Shown piece after piece: positions 8,952 to 61,208 of a stretch of DNA of 64,000 nucleotides (positions are counted from its first letter, which is position 1; every line of letters starts with the position of its first letter). A program made the position numbers and the translations under genes. The stretch is from Mycolicibacterium gilvum (GTDB lineage: Bacteria > Actinomycetota > Actinomycetes > Mycobacteriales > Mycobacteriaceae): positions 496,001-560,000 of the forward strand of contig NZ_UGQM01000001.1 in assembly GCF_900454025.1 (NCBI RefSeq), written 5' to 3'. Below the pieces are notes generated by a model. That model was given only the letters and a program-made list of their open reading frames with translations, was not told the DNA's origin and made no database searches.

Positions 8952-9006
8952 AGAGCCTGTCACGAATTTTGTGTAAGTCAGAGGTGATTTGACTACGAAT
9001 TGTATT

Positions 9007-9467
9007 CTAACACAACGGAAGTCGCCCTGGAAACAGCTTGGCGAGTGTGTTCAATGCCACAGTCCAGTTGTATGTTCCGGTGCCCGAGAACCCTCCTCTC
9101 TCGCTGGAGATGTTGCGCAGCCCGAGGTACAGCAACTTCATCGCGGCGTCCTTGTCGGGGAAATGGCCGCGGTTCTTGGTGATCTTGCGCAGTTGGAAGT
9201 TGATCGATTCGATCGCGTTGGTGGTGTAGACGATCTTGCGCAGCTCGACCGGATAATCCAGGAACGGCACGAACTCGGGCCAGGCGTTGCGCCACACGTC
9301 GATCGCGCCCGGGTACTGGGCGCCGTAGGCGGTGTCGAAGTCCTTGAGCGCGAGCTCTGCGGCCTCCACGGTCGGCGCGCTGTAGATCGCGCGCATCGAT
9401 GTCGCGACCTTCTTGCGGTCTTTGTAGGACACGAACCGCATCGCGTTGCGGATCACGTGCACCACGC
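9007..9467 (-). pseudogene. IS256-family transposase, C-terminal part
   Basis: From the IS110 junction the frame reads CVVHVIRNAMRFVSYKDRKK and continues to IVYTTNAIESINFQLRKITKNRGHFP, the typical IS256 C-terminus, which includes the catalytic Glu in NAIESIN. It ends at 9007. It joins the fragment at 11026-11849 in frame once the IS110 is removed (PETVVQT + CVVHVIRN), so the host transposase was intact before that insertion. Confidence 0.85.
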
Positions 9468-9559
9468 AGACTCCCGCTGTCAACCTTCTGATTCCGGACG
9501 CGTTCGTTCGCGCTGCAGCGATTGTTTGCTGCCTGCAGCGGGACGCTTCTGTAAACCAG

Positions 9560-10819
9560 TTAGGCCGCGGTCGGGCGGTGATGAACTGCCGGGTCGTAAG
9601 CGGTGTGGTCTTGCCAGCAGCGCCACAGGATCCGCACCCAACGAGCACCGAGACCGCGTAACGCTCGATGGTGGGCATGGCCGGCAGCACGGGCCTGCTG
9701 GTAAATCTCGGCCGACCACGGATCTTCACGGGTGGCGACGAACATCCACCAGTCAATGGCGTGCCGCATGCGGCGGTTAGCGGCGTAACGGAACCGAACC
9801 TGCCGTGTGCGCCCGGAGGCCTTGGTAACTGGCGCCAAACCGGTGTCGGCCAGCAGCGACGACGGCGAGGGAAACCGGGTGCGCTCTTCACCCATCTCCG
9901 AGATCAGCACTGCGGCGGTGACGGGTCCGATACCGGGGAAGCTGGTGAAGATGTGGGTGTCGGGGTGAGCGTCGAGTAGTTCACGTAGACGCTTGTCGTG
10001 GCCTCGTAAGTGGGTGTTGAGCAAGGCGAGTTGTTCGGTGAATGCTTTCGCCGCCACCGCTTTACCGGCCACAGTGCCTTCGCTAGCGGACAAAAGGTGC
10101 GGCTGCATGCGCTCGATGAGCGCTTCGGGCTTCTGGCGGCCGCTATAGCCGTGACGGCCGGTGAATCCACCCATCCGCGTCGCGGTGATCCTGCCCGCTT
10201 GCGCGGGCGTGGGATAGGTCTGGATGAAGGCCAGGGTGATGTCACGGTCCAGTGAGGAGAACAGGTGCAATGGCGCGGGATGGTAGGCCTCCAAGATCGA
10301 ACGCAGCCGGTTTTCGGTGTCGACCTGCATGTCGAGGATGCGTTGACGGTCGCGACTGATCGCGGTCAGCTCGGCAAGGACCGGCGACGGGGTGGCTAAC
10401 GGCCGCCACTGGGCATGCTGGTGACGCAACGTGTCGGCCAGCACGTAGGCGTCGAACTCGTCGGATTTTGCTGCCGCCATCCGATACCGTTCACGGGCCC
10501 GAGCCGAGATCTTCGGTGATACGCAATAGATTTCAGCTTCGCATTGCTGTTGGAGATGTTCGACAAGCAAGCCCTCGGCGCGTTCGATAGCGATGAGCAC
10601 TGAGCCGGCCAACGAAGCGATCACCTCGACCAGGGCCATCAGACCGTCGACGGTGTGCGCGATTTTGCGGCTGAGGAGCTGTTGGCCGTCGTCGTCGAGG
10701 ACGCAGAGGTGATGGGAGCGTCCGCCCCAATCGATGCCGCACCAGAAACGTTTCCCACCGTCCGGACTATCCTGAATCACTGCAGTCAGATCCCTTCGAT
10801 CCGAAAGTTCACGCTGCAA
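9560..10819 (-). CDS. IS110-family transposase (DEDD recombinase)
   Basis: A 419-aa protein starting at TTG 10819. The N-terminal RuvC-like DEDD domain shows D30 (CGIDWGG), E79 (IAIERAEG), D120 and D123 (KSDEFDAYV). The C-terminal Tnp_20 domain shows FTSFPGIGPVTAA and LADTGLAPVTKASG, the segment that carries the catalytic Ser in this family. It catalyses bridge-RNA-guided, dinucleotide-core transposition. The non-coding region lies upstream of the gene, which places it in the IS110 group rather than the IS1111 group. The reading frame is intact. Confidence 0.92.
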   Translation of the reverse strand: MQRELSDRRDLTAVIQDSPDGGKRFWCGIDWGGRSHHLCVLDDDGQQLLSRKIAHTVDGLMALVEVIASLAGSVLIAIERAEGLLVEHLQQQCEAEIYCVSPKISARARERYRMAAAKSDEFDAYVLADTLRHQHAQWRPLATPSPVLAELTAISRDRQRILDMQVDTENRLRSILEAYHPAPLHLFSSLDRDITLAFIQTYPTPAQAGRITATRMGGFTGRHGYSGRQKPEALIERMQPHLLSASEGTVAGKAVAAKAFTEQLALLNTHLRGHDKRLRELLDAHPDTHIFTSFPGIGPVTAAVLISEMGEERTRFPSPSSLLADTGLAPVTKASGRTRQVRFRYAANRRMRHAIDWWMFVATREDPWSAEIYQQARAAGHAHHRALRGLGARWVRILWRCWQDHTAYDPAVHHRPTAA

Positions 10820-11025
10820 TGACGGGGCGTGCCCGGAACCTCATCTCGGCACTCACCGCTGATACCGGTGGTGCTGCTCTCGCTGGCCGGTCCATGCCCC
10901 GCAGCCACCACGGGCGGACGGGTCTGCATGTGGACCTCGAAGGTGACGCGTTTGCACAGGTCCTGCCCGTGGTGGTGCAGGTGAACGCCGAGACCATCCC
11001 GGCTCGTCCATTGTTAATAGATGAG
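10820..11025 (-). ncRNA. Candidate bridge RNA of the IS110 element
   Basis: This 206-nt region between the left end and the transposase has no ORF. Read 11025 to 10820 it contains TGCAGACC (10921-10928), identical to the left target flank plus the first core base. It then has CCAGCGAGAGC (10876-10886), which matches 8 of 9 bases of the element's right end (CAGCGGGAG), and AGATGAG (10840-10846), complementary to the left end CTCATCT. The order target guide, left-donor guide, right-donor guide agrees with the IS621 bridge-RNA model. A right-target guide was not convincingly found. Confidence 0.6.
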
Positions 11026-11849
11026 GTCTGCACCACGGTCTCGGGGTAGATCGAGCGGATCGCGTCGGGCAGCCCGGTCAGCCCGTCGCAGCAGGCGATC
11101 AGGATGTCGCGCACCCCGCGGTTGCGCAGATCGATCACGACTTTCTGCCAGAACTTCGCCCCCTCGGAGTCTTGGATCCAGACCCCCAGGGCGTGTTTGC
11201 GGCCGTCGAGATCCACGCCGATGGCCAGATAGGCCACCTTGGTGGTGACGACCCCGTTGTCTTTGATGCGCAGCCGCAGCCCGTCGATGTAGAGGATCGG
11301 ATAGACCTCGTCGAGCGGGCGCGATTGCCAGGCCTTGATCTCATCGACCACCACCTCGGTGATGTTGGAGATCAGCTCTCGCGACACCGACGCGCCGTAC
11401 ACCTCCTCGAGATGTGCTTCGATGTCGCGGGTGGTCATGCCGCGCGAGTACAGCGACAACACCACCGAGTTGAGGTTGCCCAGCCGGCGGACCTTTTTGG
11501 GCACGATCGCCGGCTCGAACGAGCCGTTACGATCACGCGGCACCGCGATGGCCACCGGGCCGTTGACCGTGGACACCGTCTTCGGTGTCGTGCCGTTGCG
11601 GGAATTGCCGCTGCCGCGCCCGGCCGGGTCACCGGCCTCGTATCCCAAGTGGTGGGTCAGTTCCGAATCCAACGCCCGTTCCAGCACCGCCTTGGTCAAC
11701 TCGTTGAGCAAACCATCGGCGCCATCAATCGGGGTTCCCGACTTCACCGCATCCTTGATCAACGAATCCAGCGTCTCAGCCGAAAACGTCTCCGCCAGTT
11801 GCCGAGCCGCCGACTTTCCCGAACCCGACGACGCTATGGCCTTGGTCAC
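11026..11849 (-). pseudogene. IS256-family transposase, N-terminal part
   Basis: The first 274 codons, from ATG 11849: MTKAIASSGSGKSAARQLAE, then LLNELTKAVLERALDSELTHHLGYE and GVWIQDSEGAKFWQKVVIDLRNRGV. The DDE-domain blocks YIDGLRLRI and LIACCDGLTGLPDAI are present. The reading continues into the IS110 end, so the product would be non-functional. Ribosome binding site and left inverted repeat lie just upstream (11850-11927). Confidence 0.88.
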
Positions 11850-11927
11850 AAATCACTCCTTCTGTCCGCCCGAACGGCGGTCCGATCTTGGACCACCCCG
11901 GACTTACACAGATGGAATGACACGCCC

Positions 11928-12474
11928 CGGTGGTGTTCGAGCAGCCCCTTATGACCCCTGCGACCCCGAAATCCCGACAACCGCATATGGTAACGAATTG
12001 ATAACGCATACGCGCGTATGCGCCGCATATGTTCGCTAGATGCTTGACAAGGGGATTACGCTCGGGATCTCGGAGCTTGCGTAGAGGAATCCCGAGCGAC
12101 ACCCCTAGTGCAATTAGCTCGACAACTATTCGCCAACCGCATCACCGCATATGCGGCGCACACGACCTGGGCGAATACCTCCCGCGCCCGCACGTACCGC
12201 ACCAGCGCGTCCTCACGTGCGATTCCGCCGGCCCGGCGCCGCATCTTCTGGGCATCCCCAGCAATGCACAGCGACGTTCGGTCCGCCGCGCACACCACTT
12301 CCCTGACAACCCAGTTGTCAACCACAAAAGGCCACGTCACCGACTCCTACTGTGACCCAGATCACTTGCTTTTCGCGGCGTTGACAATGCCGCGGCCAAC
12401 TCCTGTGCAAACCCCCGCAACAACCCCCGCGGATTCCATGAACGCGTCACCAACCCGCGACGCCAAGGAATTCG
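11928..12474. promoter_or_regulatory. Non-coding region with palindromes, upstream of the HTH-cutinase genes
   Basis: No convincing gene. It contains a perfect 16-bp palindrome, GCATACGCGCGTATGC, at 12007-12022 and a perfect 12-bp palindrome, CCGCATATGCGG, at 12145-12156. The motif CCGCATATG occurs three times, near 11982, 12025 and 12145. TTGACA at 12383-12388 could be a -35 box for the gene at 12475. The density of symmetric sites suggests operators or a plasmid partition/replication remnant. Confidence 0.4.
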
Positions 12475-13191
12475 ATGAACACCTGGGACCACCTCGCCGA
12501 GCAGGCCCACCGCCTCCTCACCCGGCCGAGCCGCGGCGACCTCACCCCCTCTGTGACCCTCGTCCAATCACTGCACAAGCAGCCGCCGCCCTCGCCGGCC
12601 GCGATCTGCGCGCACCTGGAGACCGCCTCCGCCGCCCTACCTCAGATCGCCCGCTATGCCCGCAGCGGTGACCGCCATGCCCTCCTGATGGCCGCAGTCC
12701 TCATGCGCCACCCGCTGCGACGCATCGCCGACATGGCCGACCCCGACGGTTACCGCTCCAGCGACCGTGACGCCCGCGACAACGACACCTTGCGCATCTT
12801 CTTCGAGATCATCCGCACCGCGGGGGACCCCCAGCTGCTCAACTCGCGCTACCTCTACGGCCAGACCCTCAAGCGCGTCCTCAAAGCCCGGCCCGCCGCC
12901 GAATCACCGGCAGTCGCCGTGCGCGTCGATCCCCACTCAGTCGTCCTCGACAGGGCCGATCTGGGCAACGACTACGACCACACCTCCACCCTGCTGCAGC
13001 AGGCTCGCGACCGCCGCATCATCACCGCCCTGGAGCACGACACGCTGCGCGCTCTCTACCTCACCTCCGACGTCTTCAGCCCCTCCACCGCAGCCCGCGT
13101 CCTGGGCGCCAACGTCAGCGCTGTCGAACGCCGCGCCCAGCGCGCGATCCGCAAGCTGTGCACCTTCTACGACGGTGCGGTCGCCGCATGA
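12475..13191 (+). CDS. Sigma-70 region-4-like HTH protein
   Basis: A 238-aa protein starting at ATG 12475 after AAGGAA. The C-terminal part (LRALYLTSDVFSPSTAARVLGANVSAVERRAQRAIRKLC) has the spacing of a sigma region 4/LuxR-type helix-turn-helix. The N-terminal 150 residues are helical with no family I recognise. The stop overlaps the next start (ATGA), so it is translationally coupled to the cutinase gene. A role as regulator of this accessory operon is inference. Confidence 0.65.
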   Translation: MNTWDHLAEQAHRLLTRPSRGDLTPSVTLVQSLHKQPPPSPAAICAHLETASAALPQIARYARSGDRHALLMAAVLMRHPLRRIADMADPDGYRSSDRDARDNDTLRIFFEIIRTAGDPQLLNSRYLYGQTLKRVLKARPAAESPAVAVRVDPHSVVLDRADLGNDYDHTSTLLQQARDRRIITALEHDTLRALYLTSDVFSPSTAARVLGANVSAVERRAQRAIRKLCTFYDGAVAA

Positions 13192-14552
13192 TCCGCACCC
13201 GCCGCCTCACCGCACTGGCGCTCGCACCCGCCGTCAGCGTCGCCCTGCTGCTGAACACCGCACCTACGGCACTGGCCGCCAACTGCCCCGCCGTGGAAGC
13301 CATCGCCGTCCCTGGCACCACGCAGACCAACCCGAAGGCCGACCCGGACAAGCCCGTGGGCGTCCTCGGCAACATCCTGGAGCCGCTCCGTAAGAACGCC
13401 CCCGTACGAATGGTCACCTACTACACGCCCTACCCCGCGACCATCGTCGGCGGCACCGACGGCGGCGGATACCGCGCCTCCAAGAACGCCGGCATCGACG
13501 CCACCAATGCTCGGCTGAAAGCCGTCGCGAACGCCTGCCCGAACACCGTGTTCATCCTCACCGGCTACAGCCAAGGCGCCGACGTCGCCGGTGACGTCGC
13601 CGCCGCCATCGGGCACAACCGCGGCGTCATCCCCGCCAACAAACTGCTCGGCGTAGCCCTGGTCGCCGACCCGTCCCAGGCCCCAGTCGGACAACCCACC
13701 ATCGGCCTGCGCGATCCAGGCATGGGCTTCGCCGGCGTCCGCTCGGGAGGGTTTGGGTCACTGCTGCAGCGCAACGGGCTGCTCTCTGTCTGCGCCCCCC
13801 GGGACTACTACTGCAACCTGCCCCAGGGTGACCTCGTGATGCGCATGATCGGTCACCTCGGCTCTCAGCTCGACGCCGCCGACCCCTCCGGCTCCGCCCA
13901 GAAGCTCGCCACCATCTTCATGGGAGGCCTCATCGCGCCCGCCGCCGCCGCCATCAACCAGATCCTGCAGCTGGTCAACGATCCCAACCTGATCCCCAAC
14001 CTGATGAGCCGCGGCGTCGCCTTCGCCAAGGCCCTCGCCCAGCAGCTGTTCTACCTGGCCGGCCCCCAAGTCGCCGGCGCTGCCACCAACCTCGTCAACG
14101 CCGTCACCAACGTCATCAACCTGGTGACCTCCCGTGCGTGGGCGGCCATCCCCGCCGCCATCACCACCATCGCCACCACCGCCAGTAGCGTCGGCGCCGC
14201 ACTCGCCCAGATGAAGGACCGCACCACCACCATCAACGTCAGCGGCTTCGGCCCCGTCGGAGCGGGCATCTCCCAGGGGGGCGGCGTCAACATCGGCGAT
14301 CTCGCCACCGCCGTGCTCAACGCCATCAGCGTCGCCACCGGCGGCGTCGGCAGCCAGTCCACCGGAATGTTCGGACCCACCTTCTCCCAGTTCTCCGCTG
14401 CCAACGTCGCTCAGGCCGTCAAGCACTACGCCGAGTTCATCAAGGGTGGGTTTCACGAGAACTACGCCACCACGCCACTGGACAAGGCCGGCCACACCGG
14501 CACTCAGATCGTGCAGCGCTACTTCGTCAACCAGATCAACAAGCTCGTCTGA
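13188..14552 (+). CDS. Secreted cutinase-family serine hydrolase
   Basis: A 454-aa protein. ATG 13188 overlaps the preceding stop and is followed by a clear signal peptide ending near ALAANC. The alpha/beta-hydrolase core shows the nucleophile motif GYSQG at 126-130 (Ser128), Asp206 in CAPRDYYC and His223 in MIGHLG. This gives the Ser-Asp-His order and disulfide cysteines of cutinases. About 200 extra Ala/Val-rich residues follow the catalytic domain, far beyond the usual 200-230 aa of a cutinase. The likely substrate is a lipid or polyester, and the protein acts outside the membrane. Confidence 0.85.
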   Translation: MIRTRRLTALALAPAVSVALLLNTAPTALAANCPAVEAIAVPGTTQTNPKADPDKPVGVLGNILEPLRKNAPVRMVTYYTPYPATIVGGTDGGGYRASKNAGIDATNARLKAVANACPNTVFILTGYSQGADVAGDVAAAIGHNRGVIPANKLLGVALVADPSQAPVGQPTIGLRDPGMGFAGVRSGGFGSLLQRNGLLSVCAPRDYYCNLPQGDLVMRMIGHLGSQLDAADPSGSAQKLATIFMGGLIAPAAAAINQILQLVNDPNLIPNLMSRGVAFAKALAQQLFYLAGPQVAGAATNLVNAVTNVINLVTSRAWAAIPAAITTIATTASSVGAALAQMKDRTTTINVSGFGPVGAGISQGGGVNIGDLATAVLNAISVATGGVGSQSTGMFGPTFSQFSAANVAQAVKHYAEFIKGGFHENYATTPLDKAGHTGTQIVQRYFVNQINKLV

Positions 14553-14601
14553 AAGGCACCGCCCCCATGACCATCGACACCGCACCCCGCGAGCGCTGCT
14601 A

Positions 14602-14922
14602 ATGCAGAAGGGACTCCTGTACATGGACTACGGCTTATGGCTGCTCGCCGACGACACCGGCCGCATCACCCTCACCGGATGGTCGGAGACCGGCAGCGGT
14701 GACGCCGTTTCCGGCGCCCCGGCCCGCACCGACCATTGGCCCGTCTACGACTTGTGCGACGACCGCGAGCAGCTGCCCGACTGCCTGCACGATCTTGGTC
14801 TCGATCTGGCTCCTGGAGCCGACCTCAACGACCTCGACCGGAACTGGGACGTGTACGTCCGTCACCCCGACATTGCCTCCCTGCGTAGCGCTCTCGACGG
14901 CCGGAAGGCCACCGCGAAATGA
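14602..14922 (+). CDS. Hypothetical protein, 106 aa
   Basis: From ATG 14602: acidic, with WLLADDTGRITLTGWSE and YDLCDDREQLPDCLHDLGLDL. An 11-codon ORF at 14568-14603 (MTIDTAPRERC) precedes it, and its TAA overlaps the ATG (TAATG), so it may act as a coupling leader. An alternative start is ATG 14623. It is probably cotranscribed with the cutinase gene, whose stop is 50 bases upstream. No family recognised. Confidence 0.5.
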   Translation: MQKGLLYMDYGLWLLADDTGRITLTGWSETGSGDAVSGAPARTDHWPVYDLCDDREQLPDCLHDLGLDLAPGADLNDLDRNWDVYVRHPDIASLRSALDGRKATAK

Positions 14923-15538
14923 CCGCCCAGATCAGCTGCGCCACCCTGCGCCAGAGGGTGCTCACACACGCTCAGTGAATGCAGCCAAGCTGACCCACTG
15001 ACACTTCTGCGGGGCTCCTCGGGTCCACACACGGTGCTCGGCTGTTCGACCATCGCGTCGCATGCGCCGGCATTCCTCAGGGAGACAGATCGGGACGTGT
15101 GTCTGGGCTCGGCCGCTGGCCCCTCGGCGGGCGGTCGCGGTACCCGCGTACGGGGCGCACCATTGCGCACCACCACCAAGTTCCGGGGCCGGATGGGTAC
15201 GGGCGGGCGGATCGGGTCGACGCCCGGCCTGATGTCGCTTGAACGCCCGTCTGCCGCCGGTGCGCAGGCTGTGCGCCACCGCTCGCCAGGGCGCGCCAAC
15301 GACCCGCGCCACGGCCTCACCAACCCCGGCCGCTGGCGAGGGGGCCGCCCACCTCGGACCGACACGGGCGGTCACAGCGGCCGACCGAACCGAGGGTGTA
15401 CCCAAGGTTGTGCCGCAGGCATCCGGCTGATCCTCGCGCAGCTCGTTCACCCGTGGCCCCGGCGATGAATGCGGCTTCGCAGCTCGCTACCCCCACGCCT
15501 CGGCGCGTCCAACGCCGCCGGCCCTCTCACATCGACTT
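14919..15538 (+). other. Short coupled ORF remnant, then non-coding sequence
   Basis: ATG 14919 overlaps the previous stop and opens a 19-codon frame (MTAQISCATLRQRVLTHAQ) that ends at 14978. This looks like the start of a gene lost to a deletion. From 14979 to 15538 I see only GC-rich sequence with weak, mutually overlapping open frames and no recognisable product. Confidence 0.35.
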
Positions 15539-15577
15539 GTGTACACGGTGTGCTACTGGGAGCTACGCTGTGTACAT
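15539..15577 (+). promoter_or_regulatory. Leaderless promoter and likely operator of the toxin-antitoxin pair
   Basis: The palindrome GTGTACAC (15539-15546) and TGTACA (15571-15576) are spaced 31 bp, about three helical turns, and the second overlaps the antitoxin start. A TACGCT -10-like box at 15564-15569 places transcription start at or very near the ATG at 15576, suggesting a leaderless mRNA. Autorepression by the antitoxin through these sites is inferred from TA biology. Confidence 0.45.
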
Positions 15578-15836
15578 GAAGAGCTACGGTGTCCGTGAAC
15601 TGCGTCAGAATGCAGCCATGGTTCTACGCGAGGTGGCCGCCGGAGAAACCGTCGAGATCACCAACAACGGGCACCCCGTCGCGCAGATGATCCCCGCCGC
15701 TTACGACCCCTGGACCGCGCTCATCGCCAGCAAGGAAGTCACTGCCGCCCGACACAGTGTCACCGACATCCTCAAACGCCCACCCCGCTCGTACCGCCAG
15801 ACCGCCAGTACCGCCGCCCCACGGGACGACCGGTGA
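15576..15836 (+). CDS. Phd/YefM (VapB-type) antitoxin
   Basis: An 86-aa protein starting MKSYGVRELRQNAAMVLREV, the N-terminal DNA-binding fold of Phd/YefM antitoxins. ETVEITNNGHPVAQMIP follows. The C-terminal Arg/Pro-rich tail would bind the toxin. It overlaps the toxin gene by GTGA. The product would repress the operon and neutralise the PIN toxin. Confidence 0.88.
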   Translation: MKSYGVRELRQNAAMVLREVAAGETVEITNNGHPVAQMIPAAYDPWTALIASKEVTAARHSVTDILKRPPRSYRQTASTAAPRDDR

Positions 15837-16237
15837 TCTACCTCGACCCCACCGCCCTCATGAAACTCATTGACGAAGCGCCCGAATCCGCCGCCCTGAC
15901 CGCATACCTCAGCGCGCACACCGACACCCGGTGGATCACCTGCGCGCTGTCACGAGTCGAGCTGCTCCGCGCAGTGGCCGCCCTACCGCCAGAAGCCACC
16001 GGTCACGCGCACCACGTCCTGGCCGGGCTCGACACCGTGGCCGTCACCGAGCGCCTCCTCGACGCCGCCGTGGCGCTGGCCCCCAGCCCCGCACGCACCG
16101 TCGACGCACTGCACATCGCCTCGGCCCTGAGCGCCGGACCACGACTGCGCACCCTCGTCACCTACGACCCCGAACTCGCCGGCGCCGCCGCCGGCCACCA
16201 CATCACCACCGTCAGCCCCGGAGGAGGATCACCGTGA
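15833..16237 (+). CDS. VapC-type PIN-domain ribonuclease toxin
   Basis: A 134-aa protein starting at GTG 15833, overlapping the antitoxin stop. The four PIN acidic residues are visible: D5 (YLDPTAL), E43 (SRVELLR), D91 (TVDALHIAS) and D112 (TYDPEL). PIN toxins are Mg-dependent endoribonucleases that cleave tRNA, rRNA or mRNA. The length is normal, and pairing with the Phd-type antitoxin is typical. Confidence 0.9.
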   Translation: MIYLDPTALMKLIDEAPESAALTAYLSAHTDTRWITCALSRVELLRAVAALPPEATGHAHHVLAGLDTVAVTERLLDAAVALAPSPARTVDALHIASALSAGPRLRTLVTYDPELAGAAAGHHITTVSPGGGSP

Positions 16238-16614
16238 TACGCACCCTGATCATCGCGGCGCTCATGACCGGCGCCGCGACACACTTCCTGCACACCGACC
16301 CCTACGAGGCCTTCGGGTACAGCCTCGTCCTCAGCGTCACGCTGTGGTTCTTCTGGCCCCTGCTGCGCCGTCTCGTGCGCCTGGCGCTCCGCCGTCGCCG
16401 CCGCCACAGGGCTCCCGCCCGCACACCCAAGACGGCTTCGCCGCAGCTGACTCAGGTGAACCACTACCACTTCTACGGCCACGTACCCGCGGCAGCACAG
16501 CCGATGCCGCGACCCGACTACAGCCGCCCGGCCCTGCCGGTGCGCACCGAGGGCCAGAAGGCCCACGACGCGATCTACGACATCATCGACATGAACGACG
16601 ACACGACACGATGA
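16234..16614 (+). CDS. Small membrane protein, 126 aa
   Basis: GTG 16234 overlaps the toxin stop and follows a strong GGAGGAGG site. The first 50 residues contain two hydrophobic segments (TLIIAALMTGAATHFL; YSLVLSVTLWFFWPLLRRL). A basic stretch (RRRRRHRAPAR) and a soluble tail follow, with NHYHFYGHV and GQKAHDAIYDIIDM. Its chain of overlaps with neighbours suggests one transcript from the antitoxin through the next gene. This arrangement is typical of plasmid conjugation regions. Family not recognised. Confidence 0.6.
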   Translation: MIRTLIIAALMTGAATHFLHTDPYEAFGYSLVLSVTLWFFWPLLRRLVRLALRRRRRHRAPARTPKTASPQLTQVNHYHFYGHVPAAAQPMPRPDYSRPALPVRTEGQKAHDAIYDIIDMNDDTTR

Positions 16615-16960
16615 GCATGGGCACAGACAACGACGACAACGATCTGCCGATCGACCGCAGCTGGGACAACCGGCGCCTGATCCTGGCGTCGCTGGCCCCA
16701 CGCTCAGCCACGCGCCCGGCCCGCCGCAGCACACCCGCTGACGGTGACAGCGCCCCTCAGGCCGACCCGGACGGAACCCGCAAATCCGGTCTTCTCAGCC
16801 GCGGAATGCGGGCCTCCGACCGTGCCGTGACCGCCGGCGGACGTGCCTTCAACAACCGGGTACCGCGGGAGAACCGCGCCCGCGTGGCCATCATTGCCTC
16901 GGCTGCGACCGCCCGCGCCAAGGCTGTCAAGTCGTTGCGGGAGGGCACGTTGACGGACGC
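16611..16960 (+). pseudogene. Hypothetical protein truncated at a deletion junction
   Basis: From ATG 16611 (overlapping the previous stop) the frame reads MSMGTDNDDNDLPIDRSWDN and then Arg/Ala-rich helical sequence to [12 protein letters not shown]. Near 16955-16965 it joins sequence whose other frame encodes a relaxase C-terminus. Beyond that point this frame is out-of-frame noise until a stop at 17174. The 3' part of this gene is lost. Confidence 0.5.
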
Positions 16961-17958
16961 CGGTGGCTTTCAGCAGCGCCGCGCCTTGCGCTCAGCTCGT
17001 CGGAGCGGCCCCGGTGCGCCGCGCCGCCGCGTGGTACCGGGCGCATGGCCGGTTGCGCACCGGGGATCCGATCGCGATGGCCGCCGACGCCCTGGCCGCC
17101 TATCGGGCCGACACCGCGGCGGGCAAGGATGCGCTGCTGATCTGCGACACCAAAGAGATGGCCGATGCGCTTAACCGGCGCATCCACGACGAATCGATTG
17201 ACGCCCAGGCGCCCACCGTCACCGCGGCGCGCGGACATCGCATCGCCAAAGGCGATGTGATCATCAGCCGCCGCAACGACCCGGCCATCCCGGTCGTCGA
17301 GGCCACCGACATCACCACACCCGCCGCCGATCCGGTGCGCAACGGGCAACGCTGGCGCGTCTTGGCTGTCGACCCGGAGAAGCACCGCATCGCCGCCCGC
17401 CGGCTCGACGACGGCGCGCGCACCGTGTTCTCCGGGGACTACCTACACCAGCACGTCACCCACGGCTATGCGGTCACCGTGCACTCGGCCCAAGGGGTCA
17501 CCGCCGAGACCACGCATGCCGTGCTGGGCGAAACCACCACCCGCTCGCTGCTGTATGTCGCGTTGACCCGCGGCCGCCACACCAACCATGCCTACCTGTA
17601 TGAGCGTTTGGCCGGCGAAACCGAACACGAACACGCCGACCAACAGCCCGGTGTGCACGTGGCTCGTCGCGGCACCAGCGCCGATGCCGCTCAGCTGGTG
17701 CGCGGCATCATCGCCAATCGCGACGAGCGGGCCCGCACCGCCCACGACATCGCCGCCCACACCCAGGACCGCGCCCGGCTACCCAAGCGCGTCCAACGCC
17801 TGCTCGACCGCCGTGATCGGGCTGTACAGCAGCGATGGGCCGCCTACAGAAACTGGCACGGCCAGCGCGTCGAGCAAGCCCTCGAACACCAGCACTGGCT
17901 CGACCAGCACCGCAGCCGCAGCCAATACCAGAGCCTCGACTCCGGACTCGAACTTTAA
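16961..17958 (+). pseudogene. C-terminal (helicase) part of a MobF/TraA-type conjugative relaxase
   Basis: About 330 codons. The sequence [21 protein letters not shown], then [25 protein letters not shown] (superfamily-1 motif V) and [13 protein letters not shown] (motif VI) is the RecD/TraI-like helicase end of a TrwC/MobF relaxase. The catalytic relaxase domain and helicase motifs I-IV are missing at a junction near 16960. This shows that the segment derives from a conjugative plasmid or ICE that lost its transfer function here. The C-terminal end looks natural (stop at 17956). Confidence 0.8.
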
Positions 17959-17993
17959 AGCCTGGATTGATTGCGCGCGTGCGCTTGATCGGA

Positions 17994-18314
17994 TCAGGCC
18001 ATCGCCCGGCACTCTTGAGCGCAGCGGCGACACGACTCTGCGCAGGCGCGGCAGTGATCGTTGTCGTACTTGTCGCACTCGGCCGCGCACGCATCACAAA
18101 TCTCTGCGCACAGCTGGCACAACTGGGCCGCCCAACGCGACCCGCGGGACACCAGCGTCACACACACCGCGCAAATCGCTGCGCAGTCTAGGCATAACCG
18201 GGCGCAGTCGGCCATCTTCGCGTCGTTGACGCAACAGTTGTAGGCGCACGCTTCGCACGCCGCCTGACATTTCGCGCACGCATCCAGACAGGCCTGGTTG
18301 GCCGTTACCGCCAT
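17994..18314 (-). CDS. Four-helix-bundle copper-binding (Csp-like) protein
   Basis: A 106-aa protein starting at ATG 18314 with an AGGAG site upstream. It has 22 cysteines in CxxC/CxxxC spacing on predicted helices (ACLDACAKCQAACEACAYNCC...). This is the pattern of copper storage proteins, whose helix bundles hold many Cu(I) ions. No signal peptide is visible, so it is cytosolic. A perfect TACCC-N5-GGGTA box lies 23 bases upstream of the start, which fits copper-induced derepression by RicR/CsoR-type repressors. Confidence 0.88.
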   Translation of the reverse strand: MAVTANQACLDACAKCQAACEACAYNCCVNDAKMADCARLCLDCAAICAVCVTLVSRGSRWAAQLCQLCAEICDACAAECDKYDNDHCRACAESCRRCAQECRAMA

Positions 18315-18336
18315 GACAGATCTCCTCACTCGTCGT

Positions 18337-18351
18337 TACCCCGTGAGGGTA
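18337..18351. promoter_or_regulatory. RicR/CsoR-type copper operator
   Basis: TACCC-CGTGA-GGGTA, a perfect match to the TACCC-N5-GGGTA palindrome of the mycobacterial RicR regulon. It lies between the divergent copper-protein gene (start 18314) and the LOG gene (start 18477). On the minus strand it overlaps a TATACC-like -10 element, as expected for a repressor site. Confidence 0.75.
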
Positions 18352-18476
18352 TAAGCTAGCAGCCCCTCGTAAGTCGAGTAAACAGTTGGCTTTTCGAACT
18401 TTGAGTTAATCCCCGGTGGGTTCCAGTTGGGGTGCGTGCAGTGTCATCGGCGGCTTCGTGTGGCACGATCGGGTCA

Positions 18477-19208
18477 ATGCCTGGATCCGAAGCGCACCGC
18501 CCCGCCACGTGTGATGAGGAGCTGCTGTGCTGTCTAGGACCAGGGTTTCCCGCGTTGGCGGGCAGCGATCCTGACCGTGTGGTGAGGATCCGCGATGAGG
18601 TGGCGCACGGGTTTGCGGCGCTAGCCGACGTGACCCGTGCGGTGTCGTTCTTCGGTTCCGCGCGCACCCCGCCGGATCATCCGTACTACCAGCTGGCGCG
18701 CACGCTGGCCGCACGGCTGGGGGCCTTGGGGTTCGACATCATCACCGGCGGTGGGGCCGGGATCATGGAGGCCGCCAACCGGGGCGCCCGCGAGGCGGGG
18801 GTGCGCTCGATCGGCCTGGTTATCGAGCTGCCCTACGAGCAGCGCATGAATTCATTTGTGGATCTCTCGCTGGAGTTTAAGTATTTTTTCGTCCGTAAGC
18901 TGATGTTGGTCCGCTACGCGTCGGCGTTTGTGGTGTTTCCGGGCGGCTTTGGCACGCTTGATGAGCTGTTCGAGGCGCTCACGCTCATCCAGACCCAGAA
19001 GATACGACACTTCCCGGTCGTGCTTGCGGGCTCGCAGCACTGGGGCGGACTAGAGCAGTGGATCCGGACCCAGCTGCTTGAGCTGGGAATGATTTCGCCA
19101 GACGACGTCCAGCTGCTCGTGGTCGCTGACGATCCCTACGAGATTGGCGAGGTCATCGAGGGTGGGCTCCGTCGCCAGCTACAGACCTATCGCCCAACCA
19201 CGCCGTGA
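18477..19208 (+). CDS. LOG-family protein (TIGR00730-type)
   Basis: A 243-aa protein from ATG 18477. It shows FFGSARTPPDHPYY, GFDIITGGGAGIMEAANRGA and the signature PGGFGTLDE, with EQRMNSFVDLSLEFKYFFVRKLMLV. LOG proteins hydrolyse the N-glycosidic bond of cytokinin riboside 5'-monophosphates or other nucleotides. The physiological substrate here is unknown. It is divergent from the copper-protein gene and shares the intergenic copper operator, so copper control is possible. Confidence 0.88.
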   Translation: MPGSEAHRPATCDEELLCCLGPGFPALAGSDPDRVVRIRDEVAHGFAALADVTRAVSFFGSARTPPDHPYYQLARTLAARLGALGFDIITGGGAGIMEAANRGAREAGVRSIGLVIELPYEQRMNSFVDLSLEFKYFFVRKLMLVRYASAFVVFPGGFGTLDELFEALTLIQTQKIRHFPVVLAGSQHWGGLEQWIRTQLLELGMISPDDVQLLVVADDPYEIGEVIEGGLRRQLQTYRPTTP

Positions 19209-19224
19209 GCGAATCGCCGAGATC

Positions 19225-19635
19225 ATGAAAGGCGCCGACCCGCGACTGCGTTGCTTAGCTGCCGTCTGCGCCGACGTCGGTGGGGAACAAAAGTTTTCGG
19301 GATTGGTGTGTTTGTTTGGTGGACTGGCAGAAGTGATGGACTCAGACGCGGGCATGGCGTGGCTGCTGGCTGACGCGGCAGGGCCATGCCTAACCGGTGA
19401 CCAGCGCGCGATGGTGTTTGTCGAATTGGGTTGCGGGGAAAATCATCTGGCGATCGAGAGGATTCTTAATGCCGTCGTAGAAAACGGCTTCCCGTTGTCG
19501 ACTGCCGTGCTGGCGGCTCTCACGGAATGGCTGGATTTATACGTCGGCAGCCCCGAGGAGCGGCTGCTGCGGGACCTGGTCCTCCAGGTCCGTGCGCAAC
19601 GACCCGACTTCGAATCGGGACAGCATTGCGATTAA
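19225..19635 (+). CDS. Conserved hypothetical protein, 136 aa
   Basis: ATG 19225, 16 bases after the LOG stop, so probably the same transcript. It is helical throughout: LVCLFGGLAEVMDSDAGMAWLLADAAGPCLTGDQRAMVFVELGCGEN and AAVLAALTEWLDLYVGSPEERLLRDLV. No catalytic motif or membrane segment is evident. Confidence 0.55.
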   Translation: MKGADPRLRCLAAVCADVGGEQKFSGLVCLFGGLAEVMDSDAGMAWLLADAAGPCLTGDQRAMVFVELGCGENHLAIERILNAVVENGFPLSTAVLAALTEWLDLYVGSPEERLLRDLVLQVRAQRPDFESGQHCD

Positions 19636-20070
19636 CGTGCAAGCACTGCTGGTAAGCCTGCTTTGCGGCGGCCACGCCGATCGACGGCTTTGCCGTGTGG
19701 GGGGGCCGCCACCTTGCCAGGGGGTATGCGACCGCCCTGGCCAGCGGCGCGGCACGCACTCCCGTAAACGGTGAGCGTGGACTTTCCGAGAGGCAGACCG
19801 ACGCACACCTCCGTAGCTGTCGGGCCGAAATCAGCAACTCTGAGGGCTTAACCAGCGGACCACCAAGCCGTCCACGGCTTTACGCGTCGTGGAATCAGGA
19901 GTGCTGATAGGCATCGTGTCAGGACGTTTGTCGGTTTTGGAACGCAACGCATGGCGCGCCGGGCCAACCATCTACGGCGCACGCGCCTACACCGCATTAT
20001 GCCGGATTCGCCAGCACACCCTTCTGCGCGAAGCGACGATGTCGGTGACACTACTGGCTGTTTGATACCG
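19636..20070. other. Intergenic region without recognised gene
   Basis: About 430 bases between the LOG-linked gene and the tandem copper operators. The only open frames are short or shadows of the L,D-transpeptidase frame. No repeat or RNA element was recognised. Confidence 0.4.
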
Positions 20071-20104
20071 TACCCGGGCGGGGTACAGATACCCGCAGGG
20101 GGTA
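20071..20104 (+). promoter_or_regulatory. Tandem RicR-type copper operators upstream of the L,D-transpeptidase
   Basis: Two perfect TACCC-N5-GGGTA palindromes: 20071-20085 (spacer GGGCG) and 20090-20104 (spacer GCAGG), centre to centre 19 bp. A TTGATA at about 20063-20068 with TACAGA 16 bases later would place the first box between -35 and -10. The next gene start is GTG 20260. An in-frame upstream stretch rich in Cys and His (20122-20259) lies between. Confidence 0.75.
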
Positions 20105-20259
20105 CAAACCAGACTGTGACGATGCTCGTCTCAGCGGGAATGCGACGCGCATACGCACCCAAAAATTGCTGCCCGACACATAGATCCCAACGACGGTGCG
20201 GCACACATACACCGGGCGGCGCCGGCGGCGACGAATGTGAGAAAGGACAGGAGGCGTCT

Positions 20260-21507
20260 GTGGCTATCGATCGACGAACTCGCATGAGTCTTATCGCGGT
20301 CGCTGTGATCAGTGTGATGGTGGTGGCCGTGGTGGCCGTGGTGATCGGGCGAGGCGATGACCACAATGGTGCGCTGCCCGCAGCGTCGGTCCTGCGCGCG
20401 GAAACGCCTGCGACCGTCACTGTCACTCCGGGCCCCGACGCGGTGAACGTTGACCCGCTGGGCGCGGTCATGGTGAGCGCGGCCAACGGCACCCTGTCCG
20501 ATGTGCAGATGGTCAACGACCAAAACACGCCGATCCCGGGTGTTATGACCCCTGACCACCTGGTGTGGAAGCCCGGCGTGCCGCTGGGGTATGGCCGCAG
20601 CTACACCCTGACCGTGGCCAGTCGCGGGCCGACGGGAACTTTCGCGTCGCAGATGTCGAGGTTCACCACGCTTACACCCAGCAATCAGGCTGCGGTGTCG
20701 CTGACCACGACGTCGGGTGCGGCGCTGCGCGACGGCGGCACCTACGGGGTGGGCACGGTCATTGTTGCCCACTTCGATGAACCCATCATCGATCGCGCGG
20801 CCGCGCAGCGCCGACTGACCGTGACGACCGCTCCGGCCGTGGACGGCTCCTGGTATTGGGTTGATGACCAGAACGCCCATTGGCGCCCGGAGCACTACTA
20901 CGCGGCGGGCACGAAAATCACCGTGGCGGCCAACATCTACGGCGCGCCGCTGGGTGGCGGACTGTACGGCCAAGAGGACCAGCAGACCTCGTTCACCATC
21001 GGTGACGCGCATGTGTCGATCGCCGACGACAACACGAAACAGGTCAACGTTTACAACAACGGCGTTCTGGTGCGCACCATGCCCACCTCGATGGGCATGG
21101 GCGGCACGCAAACCGTCGCCGGGCAGACCCTCACGTTTTGGACCCCACCCGGGGTGTACACGGTGATGGATAAGTCCAATCCGGTCGTGATGGATTCGTC
21201 CACCTATGGCTTGCCCGTCAATTCCCACCTCGGCTACCGCGAGACCATCAACTACGCCACCCGCATCAGCCCCGACGGCATCTATCTTCACCAACTCGAC
21301 AGCACCGTGTGGGCTCAAGGCAACACCAACACTTCCCATGGCTGTCTAAACCTCAACGGCGACAACGCCAAATGGTTCTTCGGGTTTTCCCAACCAGGCG
21401 ACATCGTCGAGGTCCGCAACACCGGGGGCCCGCCCCTGTCGTTGCAGAACAACGGTGACTGGAGTGTGCCCTGGGCGCAATGGCAGGCCGAAAGCGCCCC
21501 CGCCTGA
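20260..21507 (+). CDS. L,D-transpeptidase (YkuD fold) with Ig-like domains
   Basis: A 415-aa protein. GTG 20260 is chosen because AAAGGACAGGAGG precedes it. The N-terminal anchor is MSLIAVAVISVMVVAVVAVV. Two Ig-like domains follow (about residues 50-270). The catalytic YkuD domain contains YRETINYATRISPDGIYLHQLD and the active-site TSHGCLNL (His360, Cys362). This is the domain plan of mycobacterial Ldt enzymes that make 3-3 peptidoglycan crosslinks in the periplasm. Two copper operators upstream suggest copper induction. Copper is known to inhibit these Cys enzymes, so an extra inducible copy could compensate. Confidence 0.88.
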   Translation: MAIDRRTRMSLIAVAVISVMVVAVVAVVIGRGDDHNGALPAASVLRAETPATVTVTPGPDAVNVDPLGAVMVSAANGTLSDVQMVNDQNTPIPGVMTPDHLVWKPGVPLGYGRSYTLTVASRGPTGTFASQMSRFTTLTPSNQAAVSLTTTSGAALRDGGTYGVGTVIVAHFDEPIIDRAAAQRRLTVTTAPAVDGSWYWVDDQNAHWRPEHYYAAGTKITVAANIYGAPLGGGLYGQEDQQTSFTIGDAHVSIADDNTKQVNVYNNGVLVRTMPTSMGMGGTQTVAGQTLTFWTPPGVYTVMDKSNPVVMDSSTYGLPVNSHLGYRETINYATRISPDGIYLHQLDSTVWAQGNTNTSHGCLNLNGDNAKWFFGFSQPGDIVEVRNTGGPPLSLQNNGDWSVPWAQWQAESAPA

Positions 21508-21584
21508 CCCGGCCGGGTGCTCTTCAAGACACGGCACGGGCTCCGTCAACGGTAGTCGCTGTCTCGTTGTAGAAACGCCGCTGC

Positions 21585-22235
21585 TCAAAACGTTTGCAGC
21601 GCTTGGCTCGCCAGATGAACCAAATCTGTCGCGGCAGTTTGGCCCAGGGCGCCGACGCCAGCCGTGATGGCGTAAAGGAGAAGCTGCTTTAACCGGCTGG
21701 GATTTGGTTGAGGCTCAGCGGCTTCCCTTTTGATCTCCACGGCGATCTGATGGGCGTGCTCCACTGCTTCAGGAGGCCCATCCGCGGCCGCCTCTAGGGC
21801 GTCGGCAACCGCCAGCGCTCTTTTAATCTGCTCGGCCACCGTGTACGTCTGGGTTGCGCCAGGGCTGCCGATAGCGACATTGGCGCTGTTACTGATGTGA
21901 ATCGTGGTCGCTCCCTGTGGGTCTGCCGGCGCGTTACCGCCCCGCACCGACTTTCCCGCATCAGCTAGCGCCTCGCCCTTGGCGGTGATGGATGGGCGCA
22001 CCACACCATGGCCCCAAGATGCGGTGCCACTGATGTACTCCTGGTCCCGAAGCCACTCAGAGGCCTCCGCGACCTCTTGTTGTGTCAGCGAGTCGCCTTG
22101 CCACTCAACGGCATTCGCGATGTCGTCGGCCTTCAGCACCGGGTGTCTGTTGCCATCGACCATCGCCTTGAGATACAGCCATTTCAGGACCGCGTCCCGC
22201 ACGCTCCATACCCGGTCAATCGGACTACTCGTCAT
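21585..22235 (-). CDS. Unknown wHTH-like protein, read through from a resolvase frame
   Basis: 216 aa if it starts at ATG 22235 (MTSSPIDRVWSVRDAVLKWLYLK). Residues 10-85 resemble a winged-helix module (LKADDIANAVEWQGDSLTQQEVAEASEWLRDQEYISG). Next is the stretch TTIHISNSANVAIGSPGATQT, a beta-rich pattern seen in several bacterial defence and signalling proteins, then helices (VADALEAAADGPPEAVEHA) and a hydrophobic C-terminus (LLLYAITAGVGALG). The frame is continuous with the upstream resolvase without a stop, so it may be made as a fusion. Function unknown. Confidence 0.55.
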   Translation of the reverse strand: MTSSPIDRVWSVRDAVLKWLYLKAMVDGNRHPVLKADDIANAVEWQGDSLTQQEVAEASEWLRDQEYISGTASWGHGVVRPSITAKGEALADAGKSVRGGNAPADPQGATTIHISNSANVAIGSPGATQTYTVAEQIKRALAVADALEAAADGPPEAVEHAHQIAVEIKREAAEPQPNPSRLKQLLLYAITAGVGALGQTAATDLVHLASQALQTF

Positions 22236-22744
22236 CTCTTCCCCATCTTGTTCTCTGCTTCCATTCAGAGCCCGGTACACCGTCGAGCGCCCGACCAGCA
22301 AGGTGTCAGCGATCTCGGCCACCGGCATACCGGCGGCGGCCAGCTTTCGCGCGTGAGCCAGTCGGCGCCCCCTCAACGCCGGCGGTCGGCCGCCAATGCG
22401 GCCTCGAGCACGCGCGGCGGCCAGGCCCCCCATCGTGCGTTCGTGGTTAATGCCGCGCTCGAACTCGGCGAGCGCCCCAAACACATGCAACACCAGCCGG
22501 CCGGTGGCGCTGCTGGTGTCGATCTCCTCGGCCAGCGACCGTAGCCCTACCCCGGCGGCCGCCAGATTTTCCACCAGGCCGAGGAGATGCGGCAGCGAAC
22601 GGCCTAGCCGATCCAGCCGCGTAACAACCACGGTGTCGCCCGCGACGACGGCCGCCACCAGTTCATCCAGGCCCGGGCGGCGCGCACGGGCCCCAGAGGC
22701 CACATCGGTCCATACACGCTCGCACCCGGCCGCCCGAAGTCCAT
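22236..22744 (-). pseudogene. Serine recombinase (resolvase/invertase), N-terminus missing
   Basis: The frame begins around GLRAAGCERVWTDVASGARARRPGL and continues with DTVVVTRLDRLGRSLPHL, FGALAEFERGINHERT and a C-terminal HTH (MPVAEIADTLLVGRSTVYRALN), all resolvase hallmarks. The first 45-50 residues, with the catalytic Ser, are absent: at 22744 the sequence switches to the divergent discoidin-like gene. It is inactive as a recombinase but retains its DNA-binding helix and is in frame with the downstream gene. Confidence 0.8.
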
Positions 22745-22745
22745 C

Positions 22746-23402
22746 ATGACCGTCGCCGCGGTCGCGATCCTGTTAGTCGCCCTGGCCGGCGTCAACTACC
22801 TCACCACCGACGTCAATCCGCCGGCACCGGCGACGCCGGCCACCGCGGCTCCACCACCACCACCCAGCCAGGCACCGCTCAACCGCGACACGATCCTGTC
22901 CGGGGCCACCGCCTCCGACGTCTGCCCCCGCGACCCCAACTATTCGGACGCCAACCGCGCGTTCGACAGCGACTTCAACACCGCGTGGGTGTGCACCCGC
23001 GCCAAGAACCAGGACGGCCAGCAGATCCAGATCGACTTCGGCCGGCAAGTCACGCTGACCCAGATCCGCATCATCGGCGGCTTCGACGCCACCGCACCCG
23101 ACGGCACCGACCAGTGGTCCAAGCACCGCATCGTCACCAAACTCGAGGTGTACTTCCCGAAAGACCTCAGGCGAGACCCGGTGACAATCGACACCGGCGG
23201 CGCCCGCGACTGGCGATTCATCGCCTTGAACCCGCCGGCCACCGTCAGCAAATTGCTTATCCGCGTCGCTGAAACGTCTCCACCGCCCCAACCAGCAACG
23301 CCGACAAGTGAAACCGCCTCACCCAACCCGGACGAAGTGACCTCGGTAGCAATGTCGGAGATACAGTTCATCGGTATCGACGGACAGGCACCCCCACCCT
23401 GA
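22746..23402 (+). CDS. Discoidin/F5-8 type C-like surface protein, probably 5'-truncated
   Basis: 218 aa from ATG 22746. A hydrophobic segment (VAAVAILLVALAGVNYL) is followed by a Pro/Ala linker and a galactose-binding-like fold: SDVCPRDPNYSDANRAFDSDFNTAWVC, QIQIDFGRQVTLTQIRIIGGF, WRFIALNPPATVSKLLIRVAE. Relatives usually have a zinc-ribbon domain before the TM segment. Here the gene begins exactly at the junction with the beheaded resolvase, so its own N-terminus is probably lost. A hairpin follows the stop. Confidence 0.6.
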   Translation: MTVAAVAILLVALAGVNYLTTDVNPPAPATPATAAPPPPPSQAPLNRDTILSGATASDVCPRDPNYSDANRAFDSDFNTAWVCTRAKNQDGQQIQIDFGRQVTLTQIRIIGGFDATAPDGTDQWSKHRIVTKLEVYFPKDLRRDPVTIDTGGARDWRFIALNPPATVSKLLIRVAETSPPPQPATPTSETASPNPDEVTSVAMSEIQFIGIDGQAPPP

Positions 23403-23418
23403 CGGTTCACCCCCGACA

Positions 23419-23437
23419 GTGATGCACCGTGCATCAC
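23419..23437 (+). terminator. Hairpin after the discoidin-like gene
   Basis: Perfect 8-bp stem GTGATGCA/TGCATCAC with a 3-base loop, 16 bases after the stop at 23402. There is no U-run, so it may act as a processing or weak termination signal. Confidence 0.45.
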
Positions 23438-23487
23438 CGACCGGTCACGCACGGAGCACAGCCGAGTCTCGCGCGTACCGTCGAAAC

Positions 23488-23727
23488 GTGCCCACCACCA
23501 GGACTAAGCCCGCCGTGCGCGACGCCGCGTACGCGCCGATGCTGGCCACCCTGGGCGCCCCGCCCCAGGGCACCGGGCGGGCCGTGGAAGTGAAGGCCGA
23601 CGGCCAGCGCGGCACGATCGTCGTGGCCGACGGCGCCGTCACCGTGTTCTCGCGCAACGGCACCGACATCACTTCTCTCGGGGTCGGCGTGTTGCGAATG
23701 GTCGAAAACCCTACGTCACGGCGCTGA
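23488..23727 (+). pseudogene. N-terminal fragment of an ATP-dependent DNA ligase
   Basis: From GTG 23488: AAYAPMLATLGAPPQ, then motif I EVKADGQRG with the AMP-accepting Lys, and motif Ia FSRNGTDIT. The similarity ends near 23680, and the frame closes at 23725-23727 after unrelated residues. About 80 codons remain of a protein that normally has 350 or more. Another decayed gene at a deletion edge. Confidence 0.75.
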
Positions 23728-60692: not shown

Positions 60693-60747
60693 AGAGCCTG
60701 TCACGAATTTTGTGTAAGTCAGAGGTGATTTGACTACGAATTGTATT

Positions 60748-61208
60748 CTAAGACAACGGAAGTCGCCCTGGAAACAGCTTGGCGAGTGTGTTCAATGCCA
60801 CAGTCCAGTTGTATGTTCCGGTGCCCGAGAACCCTCCTCTCTCGCTGGAGATGTTGCGCAGCCCGAGGTACAGCAACTTCATCGCGGCGTCCTTGTCGGG
60901 GAAATGGCCGCGGTTCTTGGTGATCTTGCGCAGTTGGAAGTTGATCGATTCGATCGCGTTGGTGGTGTAGACGATCTTGCGCAGCTCGACCGGATAATCC
61001 AGGAACGGCACGAACTCGGGCCAGGCGTTGCGCCACACGTCGATCGCGCCCGGGTACTGGGCGCCGTAGGCGGTGTCGAAGTCCTTGAGCGCGAGCTCTG
61101 CGGCCTCCACGGTCGGCGCGCTGTAGATCGCGCGCATCGATGTCGCGACCTTCTTGCGGTCTTTGTAGGACACGAACCGCATCGCGTTGCGGATCACGTG
61201 CACCACGC
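60748..61208 (-). pseudogene. IS256-family transposase, C-terminal part (copy 2)
   Basis: Identical to 9007-9467 apart from the final codon (PLS instead of PLC). Holds the catalytic Glu segment NAIESIN. Separated from its N-terminal part by the IS110. Confidence 0.85.

What the first reader, a model, noticed from the sequence alone, without database searches (positions are those of the whole stretch)
20071..21507. L,D-transpeptidase behind two perfect RicR-type copper boxes
Two TACCC-N5-GGGTA palindromes, 19 bp apart, lie 156 bases upstream of an Ldt with an intact TSHGC active site. Copper inhibits L,D-transpeptidases through their catalytic Cys, so a copper-inducible spare copy would keep 3-3 crosslinking and beta-lactam tolerance under copper stress. 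I know of no Ldt in the described RicR regulon (mymT, lpqS, mmcO, ricR, socAB).
Basis: partly seen in the sequence, partly recalled or inferred. Interest (0 to 1): 0.75.

Follow-up and report, generated by a model that had tools for sequence, protein, structure and literature searches.

The report
Copper-switched cell-wall enzyme from plasmid
A cell-wall crosslinking enzyme carried on a mobile copper-resistance module of environmental mycobacteria sits behind what look like control sites of the bacterial copper sensor, which suggests that the cell makes a spare crosslinker when copper poisons the usual ones.

Summary
Two perfect TACCC-N5-GGGTA boxes (20071-20085, 20090-20104) precede an intact L,D-transpeptidase (Ldt, likely GTG 20260 to 21507). 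A third perfect box (18337-18351) lies between a Csp-type copper-storage gene and a LOG-type gene. The genome has 15 perfect boxes; Markov models predict about 1, and the reversed motif occurs 0 times. A RicR orthologue passes NCBIfam's cut-off. The block 17006-22740 is about 99% identical to 13-kb Mycobacterium avium/chimaera MobF plasmids (pVT2 type) and lies on a segment present twice in this genome. The Ldt box is kept in four diverged promoter types and before one 70%-identical Ldt near copper-type genes; it is absent in 74 of 76 genome-contig loci and in 60 of 60 further stretches. Of 19 plasmid Ldt loci examined, 14 have a copper-type marker nearby (markers from this genome only), against 7 of 76 genome-contig loci and 0 of 9 control windows. 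Best reading: a mobile, RicR-type, copper-inducible Ldt that keeps 3-3 crosslinking going under copper. Copper induction, RicR binding, enzyme activity and benefit are untested. The target lists read in passages of two papers name no Ldt; the motif itself is recalled.

The parts
17006..22740 (.). segment homologous to 13-kb MobF plasmids (pVT2, pS2c, ZUERICH-2 plasmid 4)
   Evidence: blastn 98.8-99.5% over 5.7 kb
17994..18314 (-). Csp-type four-helix copper-storage protein (ATG start inferred; longer GTG ORF to 18329)
   Evidence: PF03860 30.0 bits (cut-off 20.4); Csp3 5fig E 2.3e-20; plasmid annotation 'four-helix bundle copper-binding protein'
18337..18351 (.). perfect RicR-type box, 22 nt upstream of csp and 125 nt upstream of the LOG-type gene (divergent)
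   Evidence: kept in pVT2 with a changed spacer base
18477..19208 (+). LOG-type TIGR00730 Rossman-fold protein, divergent from csp
   Evidence: TIGR00730 149.7 bits, cut-off 96.35 (longer ORF from 18432); PF03641; start as on the plasmids
19225..19635 (+). hypothetical protein of the plasmid module
   Evidence: no Pfam match for the longer ORF from 19144; annotated on pVT2
20071..20085 (.). RicR-type box 1
   Evidence: one extra spacer base in pVT2
20090..20104 (.). RicR-type box 2
   Evidence: perfect in the six pVT2-type plasmids read
20260..21507 (+). L,D-transpeptidase (Big_10 + YkuD); N-terminus hydrophobic by inspection, no lipobox found, single Cys = Cys362 of SHGC
21585..22703 (-). resolvase-type recombinase, N-terminal part of the domain missing
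   Evidence: PF00239 profile positions 42-144 of 145
11937..23672 (.). segment present a second time in the genome (C1:2407973-2421137), with an IS inserted in the other copy
   Evidence: 99.9% identity; boxes and Ldt in both copies

Best explanation
The gene is cargo of a mobile mycobacterial copper-resistance module. RicR (or its paralogue at C1:734654) sits on the two boxes and blocks transcription; Cu(I) releases it, and the Ldt is made together with the copper-storage protein behind the neighbouring box. The extra Ldt is held in the envelope by its N-terminal hydrophobic segment and restores 3-3 peptidoglycan crosslinks while copper inactivates part of the resident Ldts through their catalytic cysteine. 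Shown by sequence: the boxes, their conservation in the mobile clade, a RicR orthologue, an intact active-site motif, the copper-storage neighbour, the plasmid origin. Inferred: repression and copper induction, membrane anchoring, transpeptidase activity, the physiological benefit.
For: 15 perfect boxes against 0.9-1.5 expected by Markov models and 0 reversed controls; 6 lie in this module's two copies and 4 at CsoR/copper-ATPase/chaperone/DUF305 genes. RicR orthologue 181.2 bits. Box kept at a similar distance from the same coding site in pVT2-type, 21-kb, pMAH135-type and M. gordonae promoters; core 10 of 10 against 61-73% identity in the flanks. A 70%-identical Ldt on contig G150:C2 has a perfect box, with two P-type ATPases, a CopZ-like and a CsoR-like gene within 9 kb. 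Copper-type markers near 14 of 19 plasmid Ldt loci, against 7 of 76 genome-contig loci and 0 of 9 control windows. Copper inhibition of Ldts is cited in a review passage.
Against: No expression or binding data. The box is missing in two close relatives (M. nebraskense 90%, G045 89%) and in nearly all more distant orthologues examined. Box 1 is broken in pVT2. The promoter scan found no sigma-70-like site. The G150 box lies inside a predicted opposing ORF. A spare Ldt carries the same type of cysteine, so more enzyme alone may help little; nothing shows that this one is copper-resistant. 10 of 10 core bases against about 65% flank identity is only modest evidence per pair. Extra envelope genes near relatives are not enriched over controls (7 of 19 against 2 of 9).
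Confidence: 0.6

Rival explanations
1. The Ldt is copper-induced but acts as general envelope reinforcement that lowers copper entry or repairs damage, and not as a replacement of inhibited Ldts.
For: Some plasmid copper islands carry further envelope genes near the Ldt: RipB/RipC hydrolases, Lnt, Lgt, M23 peptidases, BlaI/M56 pairs.
Against: Such envelope markers occur in 7 of 19 plasmid loci and in 2 of 9 control windows, so they do not mark the Ldt neighbourhood. Some of them are, from recall, thiol enzymes (NlpC/P60, Lnt), which fits target replacement equally well.
Confidence: 0.2
2. The Ldt is plasmid cargo for beta-lactam tolerance, and copper control is incidental.
For: Ldts bypass penicillin-binding proteins (listings and reference titles seen); BlaI/M56 pairs lie near some relatives.
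Against: No BlaI/M56 marker within 6-7 kb of this Ldt (a beta-lactamase was not searched for); the boxes and the csp gene point to metals; the nearest clade in the tree includes Ldts in persulfide-type operons.
Confidence: 0.1
3. The boxes are chance or decayed, and the Ldt is not copper-controlled.
For: No enrichment at 1-2 mismatches; box absent in some close relatives.
Against: P about 5e-8 for two perfect boxes in a given 300 nt by base composition; similar position in four promoter types.
Confidence: 0.06
4. A different CsoR-family repressor than RicR reads the boxes.
For: The genome has a second RicR-like gene (158.3 bits, below the cut-off of 175) behind its own two boxes at 734612/734638.
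Against: The RicR orthologue lies just behind a box-bearing gene too; both look like copper-type C-H-C proteins by inspection, so the copper logic would be unchanged.
Confidence: 0.2

Closest known systems
RicR regulon of Mycobacterium tuberculosis (mymT, lpqS, mmcO, rv2963, socAB, ricR and others)
   Different: an L,D-transpeptidase as target, on a mobile plasmid-derived module; the lists seen name no Ldt
LdtMt2 (LppS), mycobacterial L,D-transpeptidase
   Same: aligned over nearly the full length (E 2.9e-88), catalytic TSHGC motif
   Different: 40-42% identical to the genome's own lipobox Ldts of that type; no lipobox found, one Cys only, about 10 residues inserted, RicR-type boxes, plasmid origin
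pVT2-type 13-kb MobF plasmids of the M. avium complex
   Same: 5.7-kb module at 98.8-99.5% identity
   Different: only a part of the plasmid is here, in the largest contig, twice
Csp3/Csp1 copper-storage proteins (neighbour gene)
   Same: Cys-rich four-helix family, E 2.3e-20 to 5fig
   Different: below the NCBIfam Csp1 cut-off (41.3 against 100)

Membership tests
RicR regulon | TACCC-N5-GGGTA in the promoter | tested here: met
   motif definition recalled, not from a held paper
RicR regulon | RicR orthologue in the genome | tested here: met
   NF052430 181.2 bits, cut-off 175
RicR regulon | box conserved at orthologous promoters | tested here: inconclusive
   kept in four mobile-clade promoter types and before the G150 Ldt; absent in 74 of 76 genome-contig loci and 60 of 60 further stretches
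RicR regulon | copper-induced, RicR-bound | not testable with these tools
   needs expression and binding assays
YkuD L,D-transpeptidases | YkuD domain with His and SHGC catalytic motif | tested here: met
   69.0 bits (cut-off 23.4); His344 and Cys362 invariant in 45 aligned sequences, Ser359 and His360 in 90% or more
YkuD L,D-transpeptidases | 3-3 crosslinking activity | not testable with these tools
   no assay
Csp copper-storage proteins (neighbour gene) | Csp family sequence match | tested here: met
   the NCBIfam Csp1 subfamily cut-off is not reached
complete pVT2-type plasmid | whole plasmid with an intact MobF relaxase | tested here: not met
   apart from a 47-nt match only 17006-22740 aligns with pVT2; the relaxase is represented by its C-terminal part

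The most novel reading that the evidence does not exclude
Mobile copper islands, and related persulfide-detoxification operons, of mycobacteria and rhodococci carry spare thiol-dependent envelope enzymes, the Ldt foremost, switched on with the detoxification genes: a target-replacement arm of metal and sulfur stress resistance next to export, oxidation and storage.
Probability: 0.33. Interest if true: 0.8.

Novelty: new variant of a known kind. Interest (0 to 1): 0.62.

Why it matters
Copper is reported to inhibit Ldts (cited in a review passage), and mycobacteria depend heavily on 3-3 crosslinks (review passage). A copper-switched Ldt on mobile elements of the M. avium complex would make the wall a recognised target, and a defended one, in copper resistance. 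It would give a direct test of whether copper toxicity in mycobacteria acts through Ldts. Carriers include a heater-cooler-unit isolate.

Tried and rejected
Searched phages for the Ldt: no match. Rfam at gathering threshold over 11900-23700: no match. Sigma-70 scan of 18250-21650: none; my own hexamer readings are not used. Boxes with mismatches: no enrichment, dropped. Idea that copper-island Ldts lack a lipobox as a rule: rejected, since the ones at C1:745905 and C1:3776884 match the lipobox pattern. Boxes before the other own Ldts: none at 1 mismatch or less before 12 others (10, where one 2-mismatch box was seen; L034 and L035; for L035 the frame shown may not be the Ldt). First pass of the 30-locus promoter check used a wrong motif filter and dropped 15 loci; repeated on all 30. 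Literature: ten searches; no paper naming an Ldt as a RicR target was seen in the listings or passages read. Most subscription papers are not held.

Full report
WHAT IS THERE. The window is part of a 6.4-Mb genome whose record is unnamed here; its Ldt's closest relatives are in mycobacteria. Two perfect TACCC-N5-GGGTA boxes lie at 20071-20085 and 20090-20104, and the Ldt likely starts at GTG 20260 behind AGGACAGGAGG. An upstream in-frame ATG at 19951 would put the boxes inside the ORF. I reject that start: the GTG and its surroundings are kept in related promoters whose upstream DNA has diverged, and the plasmid annotation starts at or after this GTG. A third perfect box at 18337-18351 lies between a minus-strand Csp-type gene and a plus-strand LOG-type gene.

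IS IT CHANCE? Base composition predicts 0.07 perfect boxes per 64 kb; three were found (P 5e-5), and two within a given 300 nt have P about 5e-8. For the whole genome base composition predicts 6.9, but Markov models of order 1-3, trained on own-genome stretches fetched here, predict 0.9-1.5, against 15 found; for the reversed pattern they predict 2.4-5.6, and 0 was found. Over 98 genus genomes the totals are 659 boxes and 231 reversed, with more boxes in 83 genomes, fewer in 6, equal in 9. At one mismatch there is no excess (80 against 88). Of the 15, by inspection: 6 are in this module's two copies; 4 lie at DUF305 followed by ricR (192463), at a RicR-like gene with chaperone and copper-type ATPase (734612, 734638) and at a CopZ-like gene and ATPase (3764602); 2 lie at genes that I only guess to be metal-linked (a response regulator and kinase, 2490281; a His-rich lipoprotein, 4449135); 3 have no such neighbour (1199823, 2399158, 5716548).

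ORIGIN. Window 17006-22740 matches the 13-kb MobF plasmids pVT2, pS2c and that of M. chimaera ZUERICH-2 (15 kb) at 98.8-99.5% (annotation). Apart from a 47-nt stretch no more of pVT2 aligns here. A larger segment, 11937-23672, recurs at C1:2407973-2421137 at 99.9%, with an insertion sequence in the other copy. An almost identical 3-kb IS stands at 8952-11927 and 60693-63668.

CONSERVATION OF THE BOX. Measured from a site about 14 nt inside the gene, a perfect box begins 184-217 nt upstream in six pVT2-type plasmids, two 21-kb plasmids, two pMAH135-type plasmids and M. gordonae. Between the last three promoter types the box core is identical in 10 of 10 positions, against 61-73% in the flanks. 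In pVT2 box 1 has one extra spacer base while box 2 is perfect, and the csp/LOG box differs only in its spacer. Against this: no box in M. nebraskense (90% identical) or G045 (89%). In 76 genome-contig loci (78 found; L116 and L117, fragments at contig ends, dropped) only the two M. gordonae loci have a box at 1 mismatch or less within 700 nt upstream of the match; two of the 76 had less upstream DNA (L060, L108), and nine matched only from about residue 146, so less of their promoter was seen. Of 30 loci of the genus search three have a perfect box (own, M. gordonae type, G150) and one a 1-mismatch box; of 60 further upstream stretches none has. These sets overlap in species, and whether each contig is chromosome or plasmid was not determined. 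The G150 case is a 70%-identical Ldt with two P-type ATPases, a CopZ-like and a CsoR-like gene within 9 kb upstream, on a 444-kb contig; its box lies inside a predicted opposing ORF.

REGULATOR. Of four CsoR-family genes, the one at C1:193165 scores 181.2 bits against NCBIfam repress_RicR (cut-off 175); the one at 734654 scores 158.3; the other two about 45.

THE ENZYME. The closest solved structures by sequence are LdtMt2 (E 2.9e-88). His344 and Cys362 are invariant in 45 aligned sequences, Ser359 and His360 nearly so. Cys362 is its only cysteine, and no lipobox was found; the membrane anchor is my reading of the hydrophobic N-terminus. In a FastTree tree (support values not examined) the boxed clade, with M. 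nebraskense, is sister to a group that includes Ldts of CstR/ETHE1-type persulfide operons (M. adipatum pMYC1, contig C5 of this genome, L055) and L051.

COPPER CONTEXT OF RELATIVES. Of 86 plasmid records with a match I examined 19 loci, chosen by me for apparent lineage, with the pVT2 type twice. Within about 6-7 kb on each side 16 of 19 have a copper-type marker, against 7 of 76 genome-contig loci and 1 of 9 control windows cut from three of the same plasmids (Fisher P 3e-10 and 4e-4). Because some markers came from these plasmids, I repeated it with markers of the own genome only: 14 of 19, 7 of 76, 0 of 9. Limits: the csp marker comes from this very module and carries both pVT2-type loci; DUF305 and P-type ATPase are not copper-specific (L166 looks like a general heavy-metal cluster); some genome contigs are short; lineages are not independent, so the P values are indicative. 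L171 shows no marker, and L126 and L128 no copper marker: L128 is a persulfide cluster, and L126 has a CstR-like gene 7 kb away. Repeated companions in the annotations are MCO, CopC, DUF305, F510_1955, P-type ATPases and two-component pairs. Envelope genes (RipB/RipC, Lnt, Lgt, BlaI/M56) occur in 7 of 19 loci, but also in 2 of 9 control windows, and one control stretch is rich in them.

MECHANISM. Copper inhibition of Ldts is cited in PMC9302775 (passages; the original paper is not held); that it acts through the catalytic cysteine is recalled. RicR represses and copper releases it (PMC10470581 passages; PMC10961391 passages). From this I infer that copper induces the Ldt together with Csp storage. 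A spare enzyme bearing the same cysteine works by dosage unless it is itself less sensitive; neither is tested. Log activity sensitises a M. tuberculosis proteasome mutant to copper through an aldehyde, so a LOG-type gene beside a copper box is unexpected and unexplained.

LITERATURE. Seen as passages: PMC10470581, PMC9302775, PMC4324632, PMC12729407, PMC4801387, PMC10961391, PMC10141476, PMC4524478, PMC6016246, PMC3353115, PMC11877719, PMC9283954, PMC8224329, PMC7730460. PMC4324632 (pMAH135) has no occurrence of copper or transpeptidase in its main text. PMC11877719 (NTM plasmidome) mentions copper 3 times and transpeptidase not at all. The RicR motif itself is recalled; the primary RicR papers were not held.

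VERDICT. Observation confirmed. Interpretation plausible and strengthened, with a different origin (a mobile plasmid module) and a broader pattern (Ldts in copper-type islands). Regulation is likely; the function is inferred.

Noticed in passing
window 18337-19208: A LOG-type (TIGR00730) gene shares a copper-type box divergently with csp, although Log activity sensitises a M. tuberculosis proteasome mutant to copper.
   Followed up: partly
L041 (contig C5:20000-39999), 7557-14404: Persulfide-type operon (CstR-like, DUF302, TauE, ETHE1-like) followed by an Ldt and genes that look like cytochrome bd; much the same gene order up to the Ldt on M. adipatum pMYC1.
   Followed up: partly
C1:192463-196076 (L005, L037): A DUF305 gene with a perfect box stands just before ricR, and another Ldt lies about 1.7 kb downstream of ricR without a box.
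   Followed up: no
window 8952-11927 and 60693-63668: Nearly identical 3-kb IS copies (99.97%) enclose about 49 kb that includes this module.
   Followed up: no
L168, L170 (Rhodococcus and Tsukamurella plasmids): Annotated Lnt and Lgt lipoprotein-maturation genes lie near the Ldt in copper-type islands.
   Followed up: no
window 15396-16237: PhdYefM/PIN toxin-antitoxin-type pair in the same duplicated segment.
   Followed up: no
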